Positions 4,932-61,949 of a stretch of DNA of 64,000 bases are shown one piece after another. Numbering within the stretch: position 1 is the first letter of the stretch; every line of letters starts with the position of its first letter. The stretch spans positions 119,609,343 through 119,673,342 of the forward strand of contig NC_092811.1 of NCBI RefSeq assembly GCF_040954645.1, given 5' to 3'. This DNA comes from Diabrotica undecimpunctata (Eukaryota > Arthropoda > Insecta > Coleoptera > Chrysomelidae). A model generated the notes under the pieces. It had not been told where the DNA came from, did not search any database, and saw only the letters and a list, made by a program, of their open reading frames with translations. A program made the translations under genes and the position numbers.

Positions 4932-5319
4932 TTACTGAATTACTAATACTGATATTTTTCTTTTAATAACTTCCTCTTTCCATATGGGTAACCAGATCCT
5001 ACTACATTCTGCCGAGGAATTTGCGACACAATTGGTCTCATTTAGCATAATTAGAGCTGCTTCTTTGATTTTTCTCTTTTTACCATCCGTTTTTTTTAGG
5101 ACTATATTTGAATCATTCCATTGAACCCTATGTTCATTATCCCATGCGTGTTTATATATTTGAGATCTATCAAATTCTCTATTTTTAATATAGGATTGAT
5201 GTTCACTTATTCTAACATTTAATGGCCTTGATGTTTCACCTAAATAAAATTGATCGCATTCACAAGGTATTTTATAAATGCAATTCTTTGTCCTTTCTTG
5301 TTCATTGTTAGGTTTAGGG
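4932..5319 (-). pseudogene. Penelope-like element, C-terminal GIY-YIG endonuclease fragment
   Basis: The minus strand reads open for about 125 codons to a TAA at 4932-4934 with no in-frame stop. It shows CIYKIPCECDQFYLGETSR (the GIY-YIG core in its Penelope form), then RISEHQ, IYKHAW, and a C-terminal Cys/Trp-rich tail. Penelope-like elements encode a reverse transcriptase followed by a GIY-YIG nuclease that cuts the target DNA; only the nuclease remains here because an in-frame stop lies just upstream (about 5325-5335) and no RT precedes it. The repeat at 4382-4480 lies downstream on the same strand. Nothing around 4481-4931 is recognisable and it may be the 3' UTR of this element. Confidence 0.8.
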
Positions 5320-5668
5320 TTTTAGTTAGAACGGCTTTCCCATTTTTCCGGATAGCGCTGCTAGGAGTCTAGACCTTTTTTCTTACCCTGTCTAGGGTGT
5401 TACTTACTGACCCACTTCTGAGTAAATATTAATACCTGTTTTTCTAGCGATTCAGGTGGGTTGATTACGAGAAATAACATTTAACGATCAGCTGTAAGTT
5501 TGCAAAAATGGAAATTTTCGACTGATGACGAGGTATATCGGATCGGATGCGAACATGATGATGATGAACTTTTCGTATTTTAAATTATTAATTGTAACAT
5601 AAAGAATTAAATATTCTTGATGGTATGTTAAAACTTTAACACTAATTTAATGTTTTTTTTCTTTACAG
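5320..5668. other. Non-coding, with an (ATG)n tail
   Basis: No gene is seen. A short ATGATGATGATGA run at about 5551-5564 resembles the 3' tail of an RTE-like or SINE insertion. The final bases (TTTTTTTTCTTTACAG) are the polypyrimidine tract and acceptor of the exon beginning at 5669. Confidence 0.4.
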
Positions 5669-5834
5669 ACAGTGTATGTTAGTACTGTGAGACACTTTAG
5701 GACACACTTTTCATCGAGTGTAGTGTTAAATTCTAATAAAAAGGAAGAAACCGAACATAAAGGTGCCCCATCTTCTTCCTCGTCTTCCTCATCCTCGGAC
5801 AGCGAAGGGGATAGTGATTCGGAATCAGAAGAAG
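5669..5834 (+). CDS. Internal exon of an unidentified host gene (Ser/Asp/Glu-rich)
   Basis: A textbook internal exon: a strong polypyrimidine tract and CAG acceptor end at 5668, and GTAAGT follows 5834. Read in phase 0 it encodes 55 residues plus one base, beginning TVYVSTVRHFRTHFSSS and then a polyserine/acidic stretch (SSSSSSDSEGDSDSES). The Arg/Ser-rich start is reminiscent of a mitochondrial presequence, but this is only composition. It ends in phase 1, which matches the acceptor phase of the candidate terminal exon at 52926. I do not recognise the protein. The shadow frame on the minus strand is not supported. Confidence 0.65.
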
Positions 5835-6372
5835 GTAAGTTATCGCATAGATTTTTGTGCATGATTAATAAAAAATAAGAAGAACACAATTTAGATTCTT
5901 AACTCATTTTCAACGTATGACCATGAAAGTTTATTGCATGTACGTATTTTTGAGTTGTTTATGCTTTTTCAAGATTATGGATAAGACGTTGAACATGTTT
6001 ACCCTTCGATCTTCGATAAAAACAGCAAAATAGCGAAACATCTGTAATTAAAATAATTGTTCATGTAATTGCTGAAACTATTGTAATTGACAACGAATTC
6101 ATACAGAAAATTTTACATAATAATTTTAACCGGTAAGATAGTTTCGAAACAAATTCAGATTTCTGCTTTAATCTGAACCTTCTATAAATGCAAGGTATAA
6201 CAGACGTTGATAAAGATGTTAATAGAGACATGGGGAATCTAAAATTTGCATTCCACGACATGTCTATTCAACTAAGCAGAAATCCTTAACGAATTTGTTT
6301 CTTGTACTCATACAGAGTAGATCCGAATAAAAAGAAAAAGACAGCAAAGATTTGATTTCACGTACAAAGCGT

Positions 6373-6432
6373 CTATGTATCTGTTGATACGTATTTCGAC
6401 TTAATAAGTCTCATCAGAACAGTTATTCATAG
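6373..6432 (-). ncRNA. Type I hammerhead ribozyme, copy 1
   Basis: On the minus strand all hammerhead core elements are present in order: stem I strand CUAUG-AAUAA-CUGUU, core CUGAUGA, stem II GACUU/AAGUC with loop AUU and the required G-C closing pair, GAA, a very short palindromic stem III AUACGUAU, then C17. After the cleavage site come AACAG and CAUAG, which pair with CUGUU and CUAUG. The predicted cut lies between 6386 and 6385. Such a short palindromic stem III is typical of hammerheads that work as dimers. No activity can be shown from sequence. Confidence 0.85.
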
Positions 6433-6769
6433 CCGTTCTCAACGTGAAAAATAATCTTTTCTGTCTTTTAAGAAGCAACAATAAAATGGCTTCGTTATGG
6501 ACGCAATAGCGACATCTGATAGAAAAATCGGTAAGATAGTTTCGAAACAAATTCAGATTTCTGCTTTAATCTGAACCTTCTATAAATGCAAGGTATAACA
6601 GACGTTGATAAAGATGTTAATAGAGACATGGGGAATCTAAAATTTGCATTCCACGACATTTCTATCAACTAAGCAGAAATCCTTAACGAATTTGTTTCTT
6701 GTACTCATACAGAGTAGATCCGAATAAAAAGAAAAAGACAGCAAAGATTTGATTTTACGTACAAAGCGT

Positions 6770-6829
6770 CTATGTATCTGTTGATACGTATTTCGACTTA
6801 ATAAGTCTCATCAGAACAGTTATTCATAG
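6770..6829 (-). ncRNA. Type I hammerhead ribozyme, copy 2
   Basis: Identical in core and stems to the copy at 6373-6432, one repeat unit away. The predicted cut lies between 6783 and 6782, so two cleavages would release a 397-nt RNA unit with the 2',3'-cyclic phosphate and 5'-hydroxyl ends expected of hammerhead products. Confidence 0.85.
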
Positions 6830-7000
6830 CCGTTCTCAACGTGAAAAATAATCTTTTCTGTCTTTTAAGAAGCAACAATAAAATGGCTTCGTTATGGACG
6901 CAATAGCGACATCTGATAGAAAAATTGGTAAGATAGTTTCGAAACAAATTCAGATTTCTGCTTTAATCCGAACCTTCTATAAATGCAAGGTATAACAGAA

Positions 7001-7084
7001 GTCTGATGAGACTTATTAAGTTGAAATACGTATCAACAGATACATAGACGCTTTGTACGTGAAATCAAATCTTTGCTGTCTTTT
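7001..7084 (+). repeat. Inverted partial copy with a broken hammerhead
   Basis: This is the reverse complement of the ribozyme region of the upstream units. The core CTGATGA and the GAAA box remain, but the 5' strand of stem I is replaced and the base closing stem II is changed from C to T, so the ribozyme should not fold properly. The inversion at one end of the array is comparable to 5' inversions made during target-primed reverse transcription. Confidence 0.7.
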
Positions 7085-7900
7085 TTTTTTCTTTTTTTTT
7101 CTTCTTAATAATTTTAACATTCGTTATCTGTTTGCCAAAATGTGTAATTTCGCAAAAATAATTTGTACTCATAAAAATTAAAAGCGATGATAGTTTTGAT
7201 GAGCTGGCATTGCAACGATCAGTCTATATTTTATTATATATCTATGCATAGTCGTATTTCGGTGAGACTGTGTAAAAATATATGTATCTGTAATAAAAGC
7301 AGGCAAAATTAAAATAAAAGTACTCTACCAGGAGTAGTTATTAACTGCAAAATTATCAATGACTGAGATTTATAATTATACAAAATTGTAATATTTTCAT
7401 CGATATTTACATTCAGATCTGCCTGGTATTATGTTTGAAAATATGGGCATTCACCCAGTTGAAGTTTTCATCGAACTGTTGATCGAGCCACGTGGATCAA
7501 AAAGCCAATCAAAACATCAGATATCGCTATTAGGACAAATCATAATGCGTTATCTTTTATCGGCAAACTTATGCATAATTCGGGTAAGATATAACAATAT
7601 TTGCTTGAGCGACCGAAACCATAAAATAGTTTATCCGGAAAATTCACCTTTCGCCCGTCCAGTGTTTTGCACTTGGGTAGGTAGGTATAATATTTTATTT
7701 TTAAACCAGCGAAAGCAGATTTTGCGAAACAAGAATATTTTTAGTATAACCATAACTACTACAGCGTTCAGTTAAATTCAAATAGTGAACTACAAGTGAG
7801 TTTGGTTGTGACTTTGTCAGTGTTGTTTCTAAACATATTTTACCATTTAACGAAGATACTTTAAAAAAAACGGGTGTGGCAGTCCAGTGGGACTGCCGGT

Positions 7901-8590
7901 AGAAGTTATACTTCTATACACGCGTTCTTCGTTACAAATTTATATGGGAGTCAATCTGCACAATCATTACATATGTAATGCTATAGGTAAGAGGGAGCAG
8001 AAAGAGAAAAAGAATTAGGTATACAGGTATATGGTGCATCGTTTGCTGTATATAAACATTTGACCTGTAATAGGAGTATTATAGTAAATGAGGGATTGAA
8101 ACAATATTTTAATGAAAATATATATTTTTATTTTCATATATGTATAAAAGGAGTTGAATGCAAAAAAATTTTTTTACACATACTCTGCAGTAAAATTTAT
8201 TGTTAATTTTGTTATTAATATAAAAATACAATACACTGCAACATAATTCAATATAATAATATAATATAAATTAAAATGCAATATTCATAAGTATTTAAAA
8301 ATGACAATATACGTAACTTACTTACGCATATGTTTAATTTACCATGATAACAATATTAATAAAAAAAATATTGTTTGGTTATACAACTGTCAATTTATCT
8401 GACATTGACAAAAACAATATTTAATTGTTGTTTGTTGTGTATATAAGTACACATTTGAACATTCTTGAGATATTTACAAGTTTTAATTTATAATTTAACA
8501 TGCCTAACGAGACTTGTTACTCGCGTGCAAATTTCCGATTCACTCCCGTACAAATTTCCAAAGTCGAACGCGCGTATAGAAGTATAACTT
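7901..8590. mobile_element. MITE-like element with inverted ends (copy 1)
   Basis: The ends AAGTTATACTTCTATAC plus a CGCGTTC extension (7901-7927) recur in inverse orientation at 8566-8590. A third, direct copy of the same motif lies at 8893-8918. There is no coding capacity in between. Family uncertain; the motif is itself partly palindromic, so the boundaries could be misjudged. Confidence 0.5.
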
Positions 8591-8724
8591 TAAAAACAAA
8601 CAACTCGGATTATGTTGTAAATTTTCATTTTATTTTAAAATTTAGCATTTTTGCGTATATTACATATATTTAATAAAATTAAGGTGGGGTTTTTAAATAT
8701 TTCAAAAATAAAAAACGAAATTCA

Positions 8725-8795
8725 TATTGGGATTCGAACTCACATACACCAGCGTATGAACCAAACACGTAATATATTTGCCAATTAGACATGAC
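8725..8795 (-). repeat. tRNA-related SINE-like segment (also at 10578-10648)
   Basis: On the minus strand GAGTTCGAATCCC is a good RNA polymerase III B box, preceded about 50 bases upstream by a weak A-box-like TTGGCAAATATATTACG. The rest does not fold as a clear tRNA. It is probably the head of an old tRNA-derived SINE; the copy at 10578-10648 comes from the tandem duplication. Confidence 0.4.
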
Positions 8796-9030
8796 ACAAA
8801 CGTATTTCAAAATTGACAGTTCTCGGTCATACAGTGATTTATTGAGATTAATATTATGAAATACAAAAGACTAAAATAATTATGAACACGTGGAGCGCGC
8901 GTATAGAAGTATAACTTCAATATGGCGTCCATGGCATGATAATAATTCTGCATCTGAAGAGCCAATGGGGCCCTCTAATCAATTGGAAGATTTACAAAGG
9001 TGTGTAGTAAAACGTAAGCGACATTTTCGA

Positions 9031-10883
9031 AATTAAAAGCGATGATAGTTTTGCTGGGCTGGCATTGCAACGGTCAGTCTATATTTTATTATATATCTAT
9101 GCATAGTCGTATTTCGGTGAGACTGTGTAAAAATATATGTATCTGTAATAAAAGCAGGCAAAATTAAAATGAAAGTACTATACCAGGAGTAGTTATTAAC
9201 TGCAAAATTATCAATGATTGAGATTTATAATTATACAAAATTTTAATATTCTCATCGATATTTACATTCAGATGTGCCTGGTATTATGTTTGAAAATATG
9301 GGCATTCACCCAGTTGAAGTTTTCATCGAACTGTTGATCGAGCCACGTGGATCAAAAAGCCAATCAAAACATCAGATATCGCTATTATGACGAATCATAA
9401 TGCGTTATCTTTTATCGGCAAACTTATGCATAATTCGGGTAAGATATAACAATATTTGCTTGAGCGACCGAAACCATAAAATAGTTTATCCGGAAAATTC
9501 ACCTTTCGCCCGTCCAGTGTTTTGCACTTGGGTAGGTAGGTATAATATTTTATTTTTAAACCAGCGAAAGCAGATTTTGCGAAACAAGAATATTTTTAGT
9601 ATAACCATAACTACTACAGCGTTCAGTTAAATTCAAATAGTGAACTACAAGTGAGTTTGGTTGTGACTTTGTCAGTGTTGTTTCTAAACATATTTTACCA
9701 TTTAACGAAGATACTTTAAAAAAAACGGGTGTGGCAGTCCAGTGGGACTGCTGGTAGAAGTTATACTTCTATACACGCGTTCGTCGTTACAAATTTATAT
9801 GGGAGTCAATCTGCACAATCATTACATATGTAATGCTATAGGTAAGAGGGAGCAGAAAGAGAAAAAGAATTAGGTATACAGGTATATGGTGCATCGTTTG
9901 CTGTATATAAACATTTGACCTGTAATAGGAGTATTATAGTAAATGAGGGATTGAATCAATATTTTAATGAAAATATATATTTTTATTTTCATATATGTAT
10001 AAAAGGAGTTGAATGCAAAAAAATTTTTTTACACATACTCTGCAGTAAAATTTATTGTTAATTTTGTTATTAATATAAAAATACAATACACTGCAACATA
10101 ATTCAATATAATAATATAATATAAATTAAAATGCAATATTCATAAGTATTTAAAAATGACAATATACGTAACTTACTTACGCATATGTTTAATTTACCAT
10201 GATAACAATATTAATAAAAAAAATATTGTTTGGTTATACAACTGTCAATTTATCTGACATTGACAAAAACAATATTTAATTGTTGTTTGTTGTGTATATA
10301 AGTACACATTTGAACATTCTTGAGATATTTACAAGTTTTAATTTATAATTTAACATGCCTAACGAGACTTGTTACTCGCGTGCAAATTTCCGATTCACTC
10401 CCGTACAAATTTCCAAAGTCGAACGCGCGTATAGAAGTATAACTTTAAAAACAAACAACTCGGATTATGTTGTAAATTTTCATTTTATTTTAAAATTTAG
10501 CATTTTTGCGTATATTACATATATTTAATAAAATTAAGGTGGGGTTTTTAAATATTTCAAAAATAAAAAACGAAATTCATATTGGGATTCGAACTCACAT
10601 ACACCAGCGTATGAACCAAACACGTAATATATTTGCCAATTAGACATGACACAAACGTATTTCAAAATTGACAGTTCTCGGTCATACAGTGATTTATTGA
10701 GATTAATATTATGAAATACAAAAGACTAAAATAATTATGAACACGTGGAGCGCGCGTATAGAAGTATAACTTCAATATGGCGTCCGTGGCATGATAATAA
10801 TTCTGCATCTGAAGAGCCAATGGGGCCCTCTAATCAATTGGAAGATTTACAAAGGTGTGTAGTAAAACGTAAGCGACATTTTC
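9031..10883. repeat. 1.85-kb tandem duplication, copy 2
   Basis: Second copy of the unit at 7178-9030. The junction reads CGACATTTTC then GAAATTAAAAGCG; in copy 2 the same CGACATTTTC runs on into unduplicated sequence (AATACCTC), which fixes the right breakpoint. The small but real divergence argues against an assembly artefact. Confidence 0.85.
9754..10443. mobile_element. MITE-like element with inverted ends (copy 2)
   Basis: Same structure as 7901-8590, duplicated with the surrounding 1.85-kb unit. The extra direct motif lies at about 10748-10771. Confidence 0.5.
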
Positions 10884-11092: not shown

Positions 11093-11531
11093 TGAACTTT
11101 GAAAAATTAAAGGCAAATATCGAGCACAATTTTAATAATCAAATCTTGCCCAAGTACTTTCGCTTTCTACAGAGCATTATCAGGGGCATTTCGTCAAATT
11201 TGGGCTATCCAGCAAGCGCAGAATGTAATAAACATGAAATTAAACATAAATTGTACATAACACTACACTAGAACAAGGACAAACAGTTTAAAATTATTTG
11301 AAAAATATTCTACGCTACATTCTTGTCGACAACAGGAGAGAGAATGAGAGAAATCTCGTGTAGTGTTATGTACAATTTATGTTTAATTTCATGTTTATTA
11401 GATTCTGCGCTTGCTGGATAGCCAAAATTTGACGAAATGCCCCTGATGATGCTGTAGAAAGCGAAAGTACTTGGACAAGATTTGATTATTAAAATTGTGC
11501 TCGATATTTGCCTTTAATTTTTCAAAGTTCA
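11093..11531. repeat. Foldback element with ~175-bp inverted arms
   Basis: The left arm (11093-11268) and right arm (11358-11531) are reverse complements with a few differences, around an 89-bp spacer. Each arm holds a hammerhead-like motif: TGCCC, CTGATGA, a small hairpin, GAAA, the palindrome AGTACT, T, then GGGCA (GGACA in the right arm). One extra T before stem II departs from the consensus. A diverged single arm recurs at about 61590-61690, downstream of a Penelope RT fragment, so the arms may be Penelope terminal repeats. Confidence 0.8.
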
Positions 11532-36761: not shown

Positions 36762-37857
36762 TAGTTTATTTTATTATAATTATAAAAAAATAGTAACTTG
36801 TTTCCACAAATTACATACAATAACATAACCTAACTAAAAGCGAAAACGGCACCTAATTTTAGACAGCTTAAAAATTACATTTACATATAGATAAATTACA
36901 TATCAAGGTAGGCAACCCGTTATACGTAGTTCTTACATCATACCGATTTGAAAATTTTTACATAAATGTGTTAAAATCGGAGTTTACAGCATGTAATTAT
37001 TTCACATAAACGATACATCATAGCCCTCAATGTTCTCTATTTTAAATGTAAATAAAAATTGTAACCCGACCGACACAGGTGCCGGTAAAACAGAAATGCG
37101 GTCGCTTTTACTTATTTTTGATTTTGATATTTTTGATATACCGTTGTATTTGTGTATTACAATATTTTTATACTACATTACAAAATAATAAACGTGAGAA
37201 GATATACTACACGGTTCCTGGGCCATCCCTTAAATCACAACCCCTAAAATCGCAACCCCCGGTCGTAAGTGCCAAACGGCTTAACCTAGGATGACGTACG
37301 AGGGCTCGTTGGAAAGGGGATGAAAAATGTGGTTGAACGCAGTATGTGCCGTGCGCATCGAAGCATGCCGAAAGGGCATTACGTCATGTCTTCGTTTCTA
37401 TTGGTCCGATCGTGACGTACGAGGGCTCGTTGAAACGGGGAGGAGGTAACGAATACGTTAACACAAAAAACAAAGATGGCGGCATTGCCAAATGGGCGCT
37501 AGAACGTATCTTCGTTGCTATTGGTCCTATTTTGACGTAACGGGGTCAGAAGAAAGCGTTGTTGACACAGAAGCCAACTGTTTGGCTTCTGTCAACGTTC
37601 AATATAAACATTCTTCTTCTTTTACGTACAGTGCCTAACAGAACGTGACAGTCTACGCAGAATGTGAAATGTCACGTGAAGTGACGTGACATTCGACGCA
37701 GGACGTGACATTTATGTGTTAGACAACACAAGACGTCGCTTGACGTACATATAGAGTAATGGAATTTAAATAAAACAACAACAACATAAACAATGTATTT
37801 TTTTTATTAAAAGAACTACCACTAAGAAGGAACACAGCAACCTTTATTCGTATATAG

Positions 37858-38533: not shown

Positions 38534-39044
38534 TACTCTATGTATGTACTATCACATAACTGTCACGTCCTGCGTCGAATGTCACGTTCTGTTAGGCACG
38601 TTACGGAAAAGAAGAAGAATGTTCATATTGAACGTTGACAGAAGCCAAACAGTTGGATTCTGTGTCAACAACGCTTTCATTTGACACCCCATACGTCAAA
38701 ATCAGATCAATAGCAACGAAGATATGGTCTAGCGTCCATTTGGCAATGCCGCCATCTTTGTTTTTGTGTTAACGTATTCGTTATCTCCTCCCCGTTCCAA
38801 CGAGTACTCGTACATCACGATCGGACCAATAGAAACGAAGATATGACGTAATGCCATTTCGACATGCTCCTATGCGCACGGCACATACTGCGTTCAACCC
38901 CATTTTTCATCCCCTTTCCAACGAGCCCTCGTACGTCATCCTAGGTTAAGCCGTTTGGCACTTACGACCGGGGTTGCGATTTTAGGGGTTGTGATTTAAG
39001 GGATGGCCCAGGAACCGTGTAGTATATCTATTAACGTGAGAAAT

Positions 39045-44715: not shown

Positions 44716-45216
44716 TTATCGTACTCCACCCCAGAACATTTGCGATAACTCTCTTGATGTCTGTGTTTAAATACACCGTTATCCGCTATTTACGTTTTGA
44801 TACGGTACGGTATTAACGTTTGACTTTGCGATAACACTCTAATGATAAGTATGAGCACAGTATATTAATAAAGAATTCTTTAGCAATATACTGTGGTATG
44901 AGTGTCGACCTCTCTCTATCTCCATCTATCTGCAACACCATTAGGTTAAACACAGACAGGGCGGCGTTTAAAGCAATCTCTCGTCTATGGTACTTCTGTT
45001 GTGCAACACAGACGAGCCGTTGTTTGTCAGCTCGCCGCGTCGGCCGCCGCGCGGCCTATGCTGAGCTGAGTACATGCCCATGCGCCGTCGGCAGTTTTAT
45101 GACTTATGGCGACACATCAGTAATAGATATCTCGTGCTTCCACACGGACGTGTGACTGTTTTGCAACGGTTTTATTTGATTACTTTTGTGAGTGTTTGCC
45201 AAATTTTGTATATATT

Positions 45217-45381
45217 ATGGAAGCTATAGACATCGATAAATTAATTACCGAAATTTACACACGGCCAGCAATTTGGGATATGCGCTCAAATGAACATTCG
45301 ATTAAAATAAAGAAAAAATATGCTTGGGAAGAGGTTACCCACAGTTTTATTTCGGAAGATGCTTTCGTGGACCATTTTTAA
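45217..45381 (+). CDS. MADF-domain exon, copy 1
   Basis: 54 codons: MEAIDIDKLITEIYTRPAIW, DMRSNEHSIKIKKKYAWEE, then a stop. L-I-E-(I/V)-x-x-RP-x-(I/L)WD-x-R and AWEE are the conserved core of MADF domains, which bind DNA. The third helix is missing, so this is a first exon or a truncated protein. The whole frame lies in the duplicated 232 bp and recurs at 48358-48522. Confidence 0.7.
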   Translation: MEAIDIDKLITEIYTRPAIWDMRSNEHSIKIKKKYAWEEVTHSFISEDAFVDHF

Positions 45382-45448
45382 TTTCGTTAACTAACGTGTA
45401 AAACATTCCTTTATTTTTTCATTCATTTACTATAGGATGTATCCAATA
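45217..45448 (+). repeat. 232-bp target-site duplication, upstream copy
   Basis: From ATGGAAGCTATAG to GTATCCAATA, matching 48358-48589 with one substitution seen (T to C in the Lys-Tyr codon area). The duplication directly abuts both ends of the RTE element. Confidence 0.9.
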
Positions 45449-45461
45449 GTAAATGAATGAA
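45418..45461. repeat. Perfect 15-bp inverted repeat at the RTE 5' junction
   Basis: TTCATTCATTTACTA (45418-45432), 14-base spacer, TAGTAAATGAATGAA (45447-45461). The left arm is target sequence, also present in the downstream copy; the right arm straddles the insertion point and is absent downstream. Confidence 0.9.
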
Positions 45462-48357
45462 CTTAACGAACCTGGAAACATCCGCAAACTGTGTGACATA
45501 TTAGCACAATATAATGCTGATATTACTGCAATACAAGAAGTACGATGGACAGGTCATGGCATAATCCAAAAAGCAAACTACAATATATACTATAGTTGCC
45601 ATAGAACCAGACATGAATTTGGGACAGCCTTTATAGTCAATAATAAAGTCAAGCACTTGGTTATAGATTTTAAGCCGATAAATCCGCGAATGAGCTGCTT
45701 AAGGATCAGGGGCAAGTTTTTTAATATTAGCCTTATTAATGTACATGCCCCAACAGAGGACAAGCAAGACGAAGAAAAAGACAATTTCTATGATGAATTA
45801 GAAAGAACATATGACAATTGTCCCAGAAATGACATTAAAATAATAATCGGTGATCTGAACGCAAAAATCGGAAGGGAAGAAATATATCTACCGCACATTG
45901 GTAAATATAGTCTCCATAATAATACTAATTCGAATGGACACCGAGCAGTCACCTTCGCAGCCTCAAAGAACATGATCGTAGGAAGCACATGTTTTCTACA
46001 CAAAAAAATACATATGGGGACTTGGACCTCGCCTGATGGATTAACGAACAACCAAATTGATCATGTGATCATAGATGCTAGACACTTCTCCAACCTTATG
46101 GAGGTCCGCACCTATCGAGGCGCCAATATTGATTCAGATCATTTTCTAGTTGGCACAAGAATTCGGGCTAGAATCTCAAATGCGAAGAAGGAGAGAAGTA
46201 CCAAAACAAGGCGCCTTAATATTGAACTCCTCAAAAACCCGCAAACGGTAGAAAGGTTCCAAAACTATATCGAAACTAAATACATAACTAAAGAGAATCT
46301 AACAATTAGTGAACAATGGGAAATGTGTAAAAATTACATTAAAGACGCAGCAAATAACATTCTAGGGCCGCAAAGACCACCACCACGCAATGAGTGGTTC
46401 GATGCTGAATGCGAGGACATTACAAGAAGAAAGAACAATGCATATAAACTGATGCAGCAAAGAAGAACCCGAGAAAAAGAACAAAAATATAAAGATCTCA
46501 GAAGAGAAGAGAAGTACATCCATCGGAGAAAAAAGCGAACTTATGAAAATAGAATATTGGAAGAACTTGAGGCATTAAAAAAGGAAAATCAAACAAGAAA
46601 ATTCTATAAAAATCTAAATAAAGCAAGAAAAGAATTTAAACCAAGGATCGGACTATGTAAGGATAAGGAGGGGCATATACTCAATACAAAAGAAGAAGTA
46701 TTGAAAAGGTGGGTGGAACACTATAAAGAACTGCTTACTATCGAAGTAGAAGATCCAAATCAACCACCCCCAGGAGCAAACAACAATACACCATTGGAGC
46801 CTCCATCAATTCAGGAAGTACGGGATGCAATAAAACACCTAAAAAATAATAAATCTCCAGGAAGTGATGGTATACCCGCGGAACTTATTAAATGTGGAGG
46901 TGCTACTCTGACTAATCATATATATAAAATCATACTGAGAGCCTGGAATGAGGAACAAATCCCAGAAGAGTGGTGTATTGGGATCGTTTGCCCGCTACAC
47001 AAAAAGGGCGATGAATTAGAATGTAGAAACTATAGGGGAATAACCCTCCTTAATACAGCATACAAAATATTTTCGAGTATTTTATATGGTCGTCTGAGTG
47101 AATATTCAGAGGAGCTTCTTGGCGAATATCAAAGTGGTTTTAGGCCTGGTCGATCAACAACAGACCAGATCTTTGTGCTAAGGCAAATACTGGAAAAAAC
47201 CAATGAATTTAATATCGACACATACCATCTTTTCGTAGATTTTAAATCGGCCTATGATAGTGTCCTAAGAAATAAATTGTATGAAGCCATGGATGAATTC
47301 CACATCCCCGATAAACTGATAAGATTGGTTAAGGCTACAATGCGTAAAGTTGTTTGCAAAGTCCAAATACAGGGCGAACAATCACAGGCATTTGAAACGC
47401 ATGTTGGGTTGCGACAGGGAGATGCGCTGGCGTGTCTCCTTTTCAACATAGCTTTGGAAAAGGCGGTCAGGGATGCCCAAATAGACAGCAGAGGAAACAT
47501 TTTTAATAAATCATCCCAAATTTTGGCATATGCAGATGATGTTGATCTAGTTGCCCGCACAACACGCAAGCTAGAAGAAATGTATACCACCTTGTCACAC
47601 GCCTCAAAAAATATGGGCCTGCAAGTAAATGAAAATAAAACTAAGATAATGGCATCAACACCCAACAATAGAGCCAGAAACATCGGCCACCAACTCACGG
47701 TTGATAATTCTACCTTTGAAGTGGTGGACAAATTCACATACTTGGGCTCCCTGATCACCAAGGAGAACGTCATGACTGAAGAAATCAAGCGAAGAATAAT
47801 CCTAGCAAACAAATGCTATTTTGGACTGAGTAGACATATGAGAAGCAGAAACTTAAGCCAAAAAACAAAAATAACCATATACAAAACCCTTATACAACCA
47901 GTGTTGACATATGGGTCTGAGGCATGGACCATTTCCAAGGCAGATGAAAATCTCCTGCTTATATTTGAACGAAGGATCCTGAGAAGAATATTTGGTGGTA
48001 TCTGTGAAAATGGTGTTTGGAGAAGGAGGTACAACTACGAGATATATCACAGATATAAACATATATTTGGTGGTAAAGACGTAGTATCCTTTATAAAAAT
48101 AGGAAGACTAAGATGGGCAGGACATCTGGCAAGATCACAGCAGAACAACCCTCCTAGAAGAATCCTTATGTCACAACCTGTGGGAAGTAGAAAAAGGGGT
48201 AGACCAAAACTCAGATGGAGGGATGGTGTAGATGAGGATGGTAGACAAATAGGCGCAGCAAACTGGCAACAGTTGGCAATGGATAAAACTGACTGGCGTA
48301 ATAGACTTGGGAAGGTCGAGGCTCTTTTATAGGGCTGTAGCACCAATGATGATGATG
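45449..48357 (+). mobile_element. RTE-like retrotransposon, nearly complete, with very long target duplication
   Basis: 2,909 bp, ending in ATGATGATGATG. The left end begins with 13 bases (GTAAATGAATGAA) that are an inverted copy of the adjacent target, then enters the element at the codons LNEPGNI, just past the WNVRT start of the endonuclease, so only the leader and about ten codons are lost. Near-identical target copies and the intact frame point to a recent event. Confidence 0.9.
45453..48332 (+). CDS. RTE-like endonuclease/reverse transcriptase, 959 aa, intact
   Basis: Uninterrupted polyprotein. Endonuclease, residues ~1-260: TAIQEVRWTG, VHAPTEDKQDEE, IIIGDLNAKIGREE, TWTSPDGLTNNQIDHVI, DSDHFLVGTR. 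RT, residues ~480-780: NNKSPGSDGIPAELI, HKKGDELECRNYRGITLLN, YQSGFRPGRSTTDQIF, palm A LFVDFKSAYDS, LRQGDALACLLFNIALE, palm C AYADDVDLV. Tail: YGSEAWTISK, WAGHLARSQQ, SRKRGRPKLRWRDGVDEDGR. The native N-terminal strand with the catalytic Asn (WNVRT) is lost, so endonuclease activity is doubtful while RT looks complete. The first ATG lies in templated filler DNA, not element sequence. Confidence 0.9.
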   Translation: MNELNEPGNIRKLCDILAQYNADITAIQEVRWTGHGIIQKANYNIYYSCHRTRHEFGTAFIVNNKVKHLVIDFKPINPRMSCLRIRGKFFNISLINVHAPTEDKQDEEKDNFYDELERTYDNCPRNDIKIIIGDLNAKIGREEIYLPHIGKYSLHNNTNSNGHRAVTFAASKNMIVGSTCFLHKKIHMGTWTSPDGLTNNQIDHVIIDARHFSNLMEVRTYRGANIDSDHFLVGTRIRARISNAKKERSTKTRRLNIELLKNPQTVERFQNYIETKYITKENLTISEQWEMCKNYIKDAANNILGPQRPPPRNEWFDAECEDITRRKNNAYKLMQQRRTREKEQKYKDLRREEKYIHRRKKRTYENRILEELEALKKENQTRKFYKNLNKARKEFKPRIGLCKDKEGHILNTKEEVLKRWVEHYKELLTIEVEDPNQPPPGANNNTPLEPPSIQEVRDAIKHLKNNKSPGSDGIPAELIKCGGATLTNHIYKIILRAWNEEQIPEEWCIGIVCPLHKKGDELECRNYRGITLLNTAYKIFSSILYGRLSEYSEELLGEYQSGFRPGRSTTDQIFVLRQILEKTNEFNIDTYHLFVDFKSAYDSVLRNKLYEAMDEFHIPDKLIRLVKATMRKVVCKVQIQGEQSQAFETHVGLRQGDALACLLFNIALEKAVRDAQIDSRGNIFNKSSQILAYADDVDLVARTTRKLEEMYTTLSHASKNMGLQVNENKTKIMASTPNNRARNIGHQLTVDNSTFEVVDKFTYLGSLITKENVMTEEIKRRIILANKCYFGLSRHMRSRNLSQKTKITIYKTLIQPVLTYGSEAWTISKADENLLLIFERRILRRIFGGICENGVWRRRYNYEIYHRYKHIFGGKDVVSFIKIGRLRWAGHLARSQQNNPPRRILMSQPVGSRKRGRPKLRWRDGVDEDGRQIGAANWQQLAMDKTDWRNRLGKVEALL

Positions 48358-48522
48358 ATGGAAGCTATAGACATCGATAAATTAATTACCGAAATTTACA
48401 CACGGCCAGCAATTTGGGATATGCGCTCAAATGAACATTCGATTAAAATAAAGAAAAAACATGCTTGGGAAGAGGTTACCCACAGTTTTATTTCGGAAGA
48501 TGCTTTCGTGGACCATTTTTAA
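48358..48522 (+). CDS. MADF-domain exon, copy 2 (target duplication)
   Basis: Same frame as 45217-45381 with a Tyr-to-His change (TAT to CAT) in KKKYAWEE. It begins at the ATG that is also the last unit of the RTE's ATGATGATG tail. It was created by the RTE insertion, not by gene duplication. Confidence 0.7.
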   Translation: MEAIDIDKLITEIYTRPAIWDMRSNEHSIKIKKKHAWEEVTHSFISEDAFVDHF

Positions 48523-48589
48523 TTTCGTTAACTAACGTGTAAAACATTCCTTTATTTTTTCATTCATTTACTATAGGATGTATCCAATA
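48358..48589 (+). repeat. 232-bp target-site duplication, downstream copy
   Basis: Second copy of 45217-45448; it then continues into sequence (CCTTCTTCTTTG) that must originally have followed the target. Confidence 0.9.
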
Positions 48590-61305: not shown

Positions 61306-61584
61306 ATAATCCATAGCCTCAGTCCCTCTAGCATAGCCATAGTCCCTCTAGCACACAACACGGTGTCCGCAACATCGGCACGGCATTCACCCGATCTCTC
61401 CTTCACGTACATTTCTCAGGCATTCTAGCACTTTCTCACTGAGATTGAATTCTTCCCTCCCTAAGCTACATTTCTGTCTTCGGCTTCTGTACGCAATGTA
61501 GCTATTCTTCAATAATTTTAAAGTGTTTGTTTGTCCTTGTGTAGTGTAGTGTGTTGTACAATTATATGTTTATGACATTTTATT

Positions 61585-61690
61585 CTTGTCGGATAGGCCG
61601 CAATTGACGAAATGCCTCTGAAGATGATCTAGGGATCGAAAGTACTTGGGCAAGATTAAATTAAACTGTTCTCGATATATGCCTTTTATT
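61585..61690 (+). repeat. Diverged single arm of the 11-kb foldback, hammerhead-like
   Basis: Shares GACGAAATGCC, CTGA-GATGA, GAAAGTACTTGG, CAAGATT and CTCGATAT-TGCCTTT with the right arm at 11358-11531. The motif TGCCT-CTGAAGA-hairpin-GAAAGTACTT-GGGCA keeps pairing of stem I and a GATC/GATC stem II, with one extra base before stem II. Confidence 0.6.
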
Positions 61691-61949
61691 TGATCAAAAA
61701 ACTATTTTTGCTCAAATTAAGTTACACAATCACAACTATGATATAATTTTTTTACACAAACAAAGAACATACAATAAATTCAGCGATTTGCGGTTCTTGG
61801 TTCTTTTGAAAGTCACAAAAAAAGTCAAAGTAATCATTATCACAAATTACTAAGAAGCGTTTGATAGGGTGCAGATAGTTGATCTAAGAGAAGATTTCTT
61901 TTCGGGAAATTGCGAATAGGGTTCACAGAAGTTCAAATAATGTGTTAAG

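What the first reader, a model, noticed from the sequence alone, without database searches (positions are those of the whole stretch)
6131..7105. Tandem 397-bp units each with a complete hammerhead ribozyme: an insect retrozyme
Two full units and a partial one carry a minus-strand type I hammerhead with every core position present: CUGAUGA, GACUU/AAGUC stem II, GAA, palindromic AUACGUAU stem III, C17, and a two-part stem I (CUGUU with AACAG, CUAUG with CAUAG). The two cut sites are 397 nt apart, so a transcript would release unit-length RNA. A 13-bp target duplication shows the array moved as a unit, and its inverted tail suggests how it integrated. The fold is read directly; the retrozyme label rests on published descriptions of tandem hammerhead elements in animals, recalled from memory.
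Basis: partly seen in the sequence, partly recalled or inferred. Interest (0 to 1): 0.93.

Follow-up and report, generated by a model that had tools for sequence, protein, structure and literature searches.

The report
Insect retrozyme array with hammerhead ribozymes
A short stretch of probably insect DNA holds back-to-back copies of a 397-letter mobile element whose RNA appears to carry a self-cutting ribozyme; the kind is known in animals, but this copy keeps the scars of its insertion, including an inverted piece at one end.

Summary
Window 6131-7105 is one insertion flanked by a 13-bp target duplication: 2.2 tandem 397-bp units, an inverted 89-nt piece and a T-rich tract. Both full units carry, on the minus strand, every core base of a type I hammerhead, stems I and II, and a palindromic stem III; the cut sites are 397 nt apart. 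No Rfam family reaches its gathering score; the best ribozyme match is sub-threshold RAGATH-1-hammerhead (21.9 bits). A strict descriptor hits only these two sites and nothing in 100 shuffled windows. Stem III has only two A-U pairs, so cleavage alone or as a dimer is open. The sequence features tested fit published animal non-LTR retrozymes, already reported from insects. Copy number (own-genome search did not complete), transcription and cleavage are untested. Unusual is the junction: the insert starts inside the monomer, spans the ribozyme cut site three times and ends in a head-to-head inverted piece at the sense 5' end. Penelope-like elements are published with that layout, and a GIY-YIG-like fragment, probably Penelope-like, lies 0.8 kb away. 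A LINE with twin priming is not excluded. Verdict: new member of a known kind.

The parts
6118..6130 (.). left copy of 13-bp target-site duplication TAATAATTTTAAC
6131..6528 (-). unit 1 (398 nt)
6373..6432 (-). type I hammerhead of unit 1; expected cut between 6386 and 6385
   Evidence: sub-threshold RAGATH-1-hammerhead match
6529..6925 (-). unit 2 (397 nt)
6770..6829 (-). type I hammerhead of unit 2; expected cut between 6783 and 6782
   Evidence: sub-threshold RAGATH-1-hammerhead match
6926..6999 (-). partial third unit (monomer nt 254 back to 181), no hammerhead
7000..7001 (.). two bases (AG) at the inversion junction that match neither side; they sit in CAGA-AG-TCTG
7002..7090 (+). inverted segment: hammerhead core through the cut site to the U-tract (monomer nt 365-397 and 1-56), head-to-head with the array; no 5' strand of stem I
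7091..7105 (+). rest of an expanded T-rich tract ending the insert
7106..7118 (.). right copy of the target-site duplication
4935..5321 (-). GIY-YIG-like endonuclease fragment, probably of a Penelope-like element; not part of the insertion, but a lead to the enzyme family
   Evidence: no significant Pfam hit

Best explanation
This is a genomic copy of an animal non-LTR retrozyme. Shown: tandem 397-bp units with complete type I hammerhead sequences on the minus strand, in one block with a 13-bp target duplication and an inverted segment. Inferred: minus-strand transcripts cut themselves at each hammerhead, alone or as two hammerheads joined through the palindromic stem III, and the 397-nt RNA is closed into a circle. 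A reverse transcriptase supplied in trans copied the circle (or an uncut multimer) from a nicked plus strand, starting at monomer nt 254 and going round 2.2 times, while the nicked minus strand primed a second short copy at the U-tract. Joining the two copies made the head-to-head inversion. A Penelope-like enzyme is the likeliest helper (about 0.5), a LINE the next. Confidence below is for the retrozyme reading with copying begun at both target ends, whichever the enzyme.
For: Array, units and TSD. Core and stems, 0 descriptor hits in 100 shuffled windows and in 65 fetched prokaryote loci of 466 kb. Circular monomer MFE -95.3 kcal/mol against -71.9 +/- 5.5 in 100 dinucleotide shuffles, z -4.2; 1 of 63 random window stretches of 397 nt with GC up to 0.36 is as stable (7 of all 99). 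Pairs of stems I and II have probabilities 0.25-0.87 in the circular ensemble. GC 0.33. The hammerhead's CTGANGA box occurs on one polarity only in 6131-7000. The array crosses the cut site twice and the inverted segment once more, so the template was circular or uncleaved. [quoted passage not shown] a Penelope enzyme extends both target strands, prefers AT-rich sites and starts inside the RNA at a stem-loop (PMC11167929, main text). The insert starts at a predicted small stem-loop.
Against: No Rfam hit at gathering in the whole window; no Hammerhead type I model appears even at E up to 10. Stem III forms with probability 0.0 in the circular monomer; with 140 nt of context the unconstrained fold beats the hammerhead fold by 5.2 kcal/mol, and the isolated 60-nt motif prefers another fold (-8.5 against -3.0). 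The antisense circle is as stable as the sense one (-97.1), so stability does not mark the polarity. Paired fraction 65% is below the 70% quoted for metazoan repeats (PMC4918200 passages). No second copy in the window; genome copies could not be counted. The T-tract is not a straight copy of the unit. The authors of PMC3846280 explain head-to-head Penelope inversions by self-priming on an antisense template, not by two-ended priming. In PMC11167929 hammerhead mutants did not change insertion in vitro. The stem-loop start is one case, A+C 0.6 over nt 240-254.
Confidence: 0.8

Rival explanations
1. The same retrozyme, but mobilised by a LINE: target-primed reverse transcription with twin priming gave the inverted segment and the TSD. 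This is nested within the main reading.
For: The window holds two long frames with endonuclease and RT domains. A 15-bp TSD in Nematostella repeats was likened to LINE mobilisation (PMC4918200 passages). Twin-primed 5' inversions are known for L1 (recalled).
Against: No poly(A) or A-rich tail at the sense 3' end; the insert starts inside the monomer. Outside the insert the window holds only short chance-level matches to the unit (best 22 nt, E 0.29).
Confidence: 0.35
2. A satellite repeat that grew by unequal exchange, with a hammerhead as a passenger.
For: Hammerheads were described early in satellite DNA of newts and cave crickets (PMC7229834; PMC2837043 passages).
Against: Exact 13-bp TSD around the whole block, an inverted end and only 2.2 units.
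Confidence: 0.05
3. DNA copy of a viroid-like or satellite-like circular RNA that is not itself a retroelement family.
For: Small, circular-compatible, highly self-paired unit.
Against: Hammerhead box on one polarity only; no matching hammerhead in the viral contigs for two exact patterns. One-polarity agents are not excluded by this.
Confidence: 0.07

Closest known systems
Animal non-LTR retrozymes (Cervera and de la Pena 2020, PMC7229834)
   Same: Type I hammerhead, tandem units inside the 170-400 nt range, low GC, TSD over 4 bp, no coding capacity seen, stable circular fold
   Different: No inverted 5' segment is described in the parts read (1-4 of 6), and 'inverted' occurs 0 times in that paper. 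Circular RNA not shown here
Penelope-like elements with minimal type I hammerheads (PMC3846280, PMC11167929, PMC7761336)
   Same: Tandem or partial-tandem copies, inverted repeat at the 5' end in some copies, AT-rich target, variable TSD, internal RT start
   Different: No RT/EN reading frame in the insert; stem I has two parts with an internal loop, unlike the minimal variants said to lack helix III or loop-loop contacts (PMC7761336 passages)
Newt and axolotl hammerhead repeats (described in PMC7229834)
   Same: Units of about 330-350 bp; weak stem III, in one class with a palindromic loop, cleaving best as dimers
   Different: Here two A-U pairs with an ACGU loop; that paper likens a two-pair stem with tetraloop to invertebrate motifs, most of which cleave well as monomers
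RAGATH-1-hammerhead (Rfam RF03152)
   Same: Only ribozyme among the four relaxed Rfam matches; covers core and flanks at both sites
   Different: 21.9 bits against a gathering score of 56.3

Membership tests
Animal non-LTR retrozyme | Type I hammerhead with full core | tested here: met
Animal non-LTR retrozyme | Tandem repeats of about 170-400 bp | tested here: met
   397-bp period, 2.2 copies
Animal non-LTR retrozyme | Low GC (under 45%) | tested here: met
   0.33
Animal non-LTR retrozyme | TSD longer than 4 bp | tested here: met
   13 bp, exact
Animal non-LTR retrozyme | No coding capacity | tested here: met
   no ORF of 120 aa or more in the insert; stop-to-stop frames lying wholly within 6131-7105 are at most 57 aa
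Animal non-LTR retrozyme | No LTR, primer-binding site or polypurine tract | not tested
   no search for a tRNA-complementary site or polypurine tract was made
Animal non-LTR retrozyme | Highly self-paired circular monomer | tested here: met
   z -4.2 against shuffles, 65% paired; short of the 70% quoted in PMC4918200
Animal non-LTR retrozyme | Multiple dispersed genomic copies | tested here: inconclusive
   own-genome search did not complete (10 tries); one insertion in 64 kb
Animal non-LTR retrozyme | Self-cleavage and circular RNA in tissue | not testable with these tools
   needs transcripts or RNA-seq
Animal non-LTR retrozyme | Loop 1-loop 2 tertiary contacts | not tested
   internal loop AAUAA/AUA and loop AUU are present, contacts not modelled
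Rfam hammerhead models | Score above the curated gathering cut-off | tested here: not met
   0 hits; 21.9 of 56.3 bits for RF03152
Penelope-like element (the insert) | Single ORF with RT and GIY-YIG endonuclease | tested here: not met
   no such ORF in 6131-7105
Penelope-like element (the insert) | Direct repeats plus inverted repeat at the 5' end, TSD | tested here: met
   same layout (compare PMC3846280 passages); it is optional in that family
Penelope-like element (fragment 4935-5321) | GIY-YIG endonuclease domain | tested here: inconclusive
LINE-mobilised SINE | A-rich or partner-LINE-like 3' end | tested here: inconclusive
   no A-rich end: sense 3' end is CTATCTTACCG next to the TSD; likeness to a partner LINE tested only within the window, none found

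The most novel reading that the evidence does not exclude
The junctions record a retrozyme circle copied from both nicked strands by a Penelope-type reverse transcriptase: internal start in a small stem-loop, rolling copy past the ribozyme cut site, and a second primed copy that left the head-to-head inversion. If other copies share the same start site and inversion, the suspected helper of animal retrozymes would be identified from genomic scars.
Probability: 0.4. Interest if true: 0.7.

Novelty: new member of a known kind. Interest (0 to 1): 0.5.

Why it matters
Which enzyme inserts animal retrozymes was left open in the papers I read; Penelope-like elements were named a strong candidate because of shared type I hammerheads, tandem copies and co-existence (PMC7229834). 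This insertion has both ends readable, a clear TSD and an inverted segment of the layout published for some Penelope-like copies, so the idea can be tested by reading the ends of other copies in the same genome. The two near-identical units also make a ready substrate for asking whether the hammerhead cuts alone or as a dimer.

Tried and rejected
Rfam at gathering over the window found nothing; around the endonuclease fragment the relaxed search gave 10 weak matches, none a hammerhead. Exact hammerhead patterns in viral contigs: 0 matches in two scans. A looser pattern in prokaryote genomes gave 65 loci, 0 of which pass the stem descriptor, so I take them as chance. A bare CTGANGA...GAAA pattern gives 11 matches in the window, 3 of them in the insert, against a mean of 4.2; 2 of 100 shuffles reach 11. 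The claim therefore rests on the full descriptor. The dimeric hammerhead fold was not evaluated, being a pseudoknot for the folding program.

Considered and dropped: calling the element a Penelope-like element (no ORF); calling it a plain satellite (TSD, inverted end); stating a copy number or species; stating that cleavage must be dimeric.

Literature: PMC4209133 (hammerheads in Penelope-like elements) is not held. Work by others on dimeric Penelope hammerheads is recalled only. Of the papers cited I saw: PMC7229834 parts 1-4 of 6; PMC11167929 outline and main text; passages only of PMC7761336, PMC2837043, PMC3846280, PMC4918200 and PMC7936874.

Full report
What is there. Window 6131-7105 is a single insertion between two copies of TAATAATTTTAAC (6118-6130 and 7106-7118). 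The 13-mer occurs nowhere else in the window on either strand, and in 0 of 2000 shuffles of 7091-7190 (its last 11 bases in 1 of 2000). Inside are unit 1 (6131-6528), unit 2 (6529-6925) and 74 nt of a third unit (6926-6999), with period 397 and 98% matches. Units 1 and 2 differ by two substitutions and one single-base indel; the 74 nt of the third differ from unit 2 by two substitutions. After two bases that match neither side (7000-7001) comes an 89-nt segment in opposite orientation (7002-7090), 98% and 97% complementary to 6330-6418 and 6727-6815. It runs into a T-tract longer than that in the units, up to 7105. No other copy of the unit lies in the 64 kb; outside the insert the best match to the unit is 22 nt, E 0.29.

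The ribozyme. On the minus strand each full unit reads CUAUG-AAUAA-CUGUU-CUGAUGA-GACUU-AUU-AAGUC-GAA-AUACGUAU-C-AACAG-AUA-CAUAG (6432-6373 and 6829-6770). That is the complete core of a type I hammerhead (core positions recalled) with a two-part stem I, a 5-bp stem II and a palindromic stem III. A descriptor demanding the core, stem I of at least 5 bp, stem II of at least 3 bp closed by G-C, and stem III of at least 2 bp finds these two sites and no other in the window, and nothing in 100 dinucleotide-preserving shuffles of it. It finds nothing in 65 prokaryote loci (466 kb) that a looser sequence pattern had picked. Rfam gives no match at gathering scores. With relaxed settings on 6100-7150 there are four matches: RAGATH-1-hammerhead at both sites, 21.9 bits against a cut-off of 56.3, E 0.59, and two non-ribozyme families with E above 4; no other hammerhead family appears. 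The third core, at 7003 on the plus strand, sits in the inverted segment, has a G-U in place of the G-C pair at the base of stem II and lacks the 5' strand of stem I; I expect it to be inactive.

Fold. The 397-nt circular monomer has a minimum energy of -95.3 kcal/mol; 100 dinucleotide shuffles average -71.9 +/- 5.5, none as low; the antisense circle is as stable, -97.1. Of 99 random 397-nt stretches of the window 7 are as stable, but only 1 of the 63 with GC up to 0.36. The hammerhead sits at the tip of a long imperfect stem formed by 6336-6380 and 6425-6469, 78% complementary. In the circular ensemble the pairs of stems I and II have probabilities 0.25-0.87, but the two A-U pairs of stem III 0.0; with 140 nt of context the hammerhead fold lies 5.2 kcal/mol above the best fold. 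In PMC7229834 amphibian motifs with a weak stem III cleave best as dimers, while most invertebrate motifs cleave well alone, and a two-pair stem III with tetraloop is likened to the invertebrate ones. So whether this one acts alone or as a dimer is open; the palindrome allows the dimer. No activity was measured.

How it got there. Number the monomer from the first base after the cut. The plus strand of the insert starts opposite nt 254, continues past the cut site twice and stops opposite nt 181 in the third round; the inverted piece covers nt 365-397 and 1-56 and so also spans the cut site. If the units were made by reverse transcription, the template was circular or an uncleaved multimer. 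In the predicted circular fold nt 254 is the first 3' stem base of a small hairpin with loop UUACC. In sense orientation the inverted piece lies at the 5' end, head-to-head; the junction reads CAGA-AG-TCTG. My account is two-ended priming: both nicked target strands were extended on the same RNA and the two products joined. [quoted passage not shown] Two points in these papers cut the other way: the rotifer authors explain such inversions by self-priming on an antisense template, and the lizard enzyme's insertion did not need hammerhead cleavage in vitro. L1-type twin priming (recalled) would also give a 5' inversion, but here the sense 3' end has no A-tail and lies inside the monomer. One copy cannot settle this; I put Penelope-type at about 0.5 and LINE at about 0.35.

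What it is. [quoted passage not shown] they are stated to occur in insects among other groups (PMC7229834). The sequence features I tested are met; PBS, PPT and loop contacts were not tested, copy number is inconclusive because the own-genome search did not complete, and cleavage and circular RNA cannot be tested here. I file it as a new member of that known kind. The head-to-head inverted end is the unusual part. Three searches of the held library (retrozyme, hammerhead, insect, Penelope-like; retrozyme, circRNA, Penelope, mobiliz, inverted; retrozyme, target site duplication, head-to-head) listed no title or abstract start that reports it, and 'inverted' occurs 0 times in PMC7229834. I opened only some of the listed papers, most as passages; supplements and subscription papers were not searched. 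This is not a claim of first description.

Noticed in passing
7175-9028 and 9030-10883: A 1.85-kb direct tandem duplication, 99.2% identical, begins 57 bp past the end of the retrozyme's right TSD copy.
   Followed up: no
45214-45448 and 48355-48589: 235-bp direct repeats, 99% identical, flank the 959-aa endonuclease-RT frame at 45453-48332, a layout I find unusual for a LINE.
   Followed up: no
11093-11531: A 439-bp imperfect palindrome (85%) whose parts recur at 61503-61691 at about 75% identity.
   Followed up: no
37192-37667 and 38563-39037: Inverted repeat, 92% identical over 477 alignment columns, about 0.9 kb apart.
   Followed up: no
4935-5321 minus: GIY-YIG-like endonuclease fragment, probably a Penelope-like remnant, 0.8 kb from the array and on the same strand as the hammerheads.
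   Followed up: yes
5651-5834: Serine- and acid-rich open frame followed by a splice-donor-like GTAAGT at 5835; the array may lie in an intron, with hammerheads antisense to the gene.
   Followed up: no
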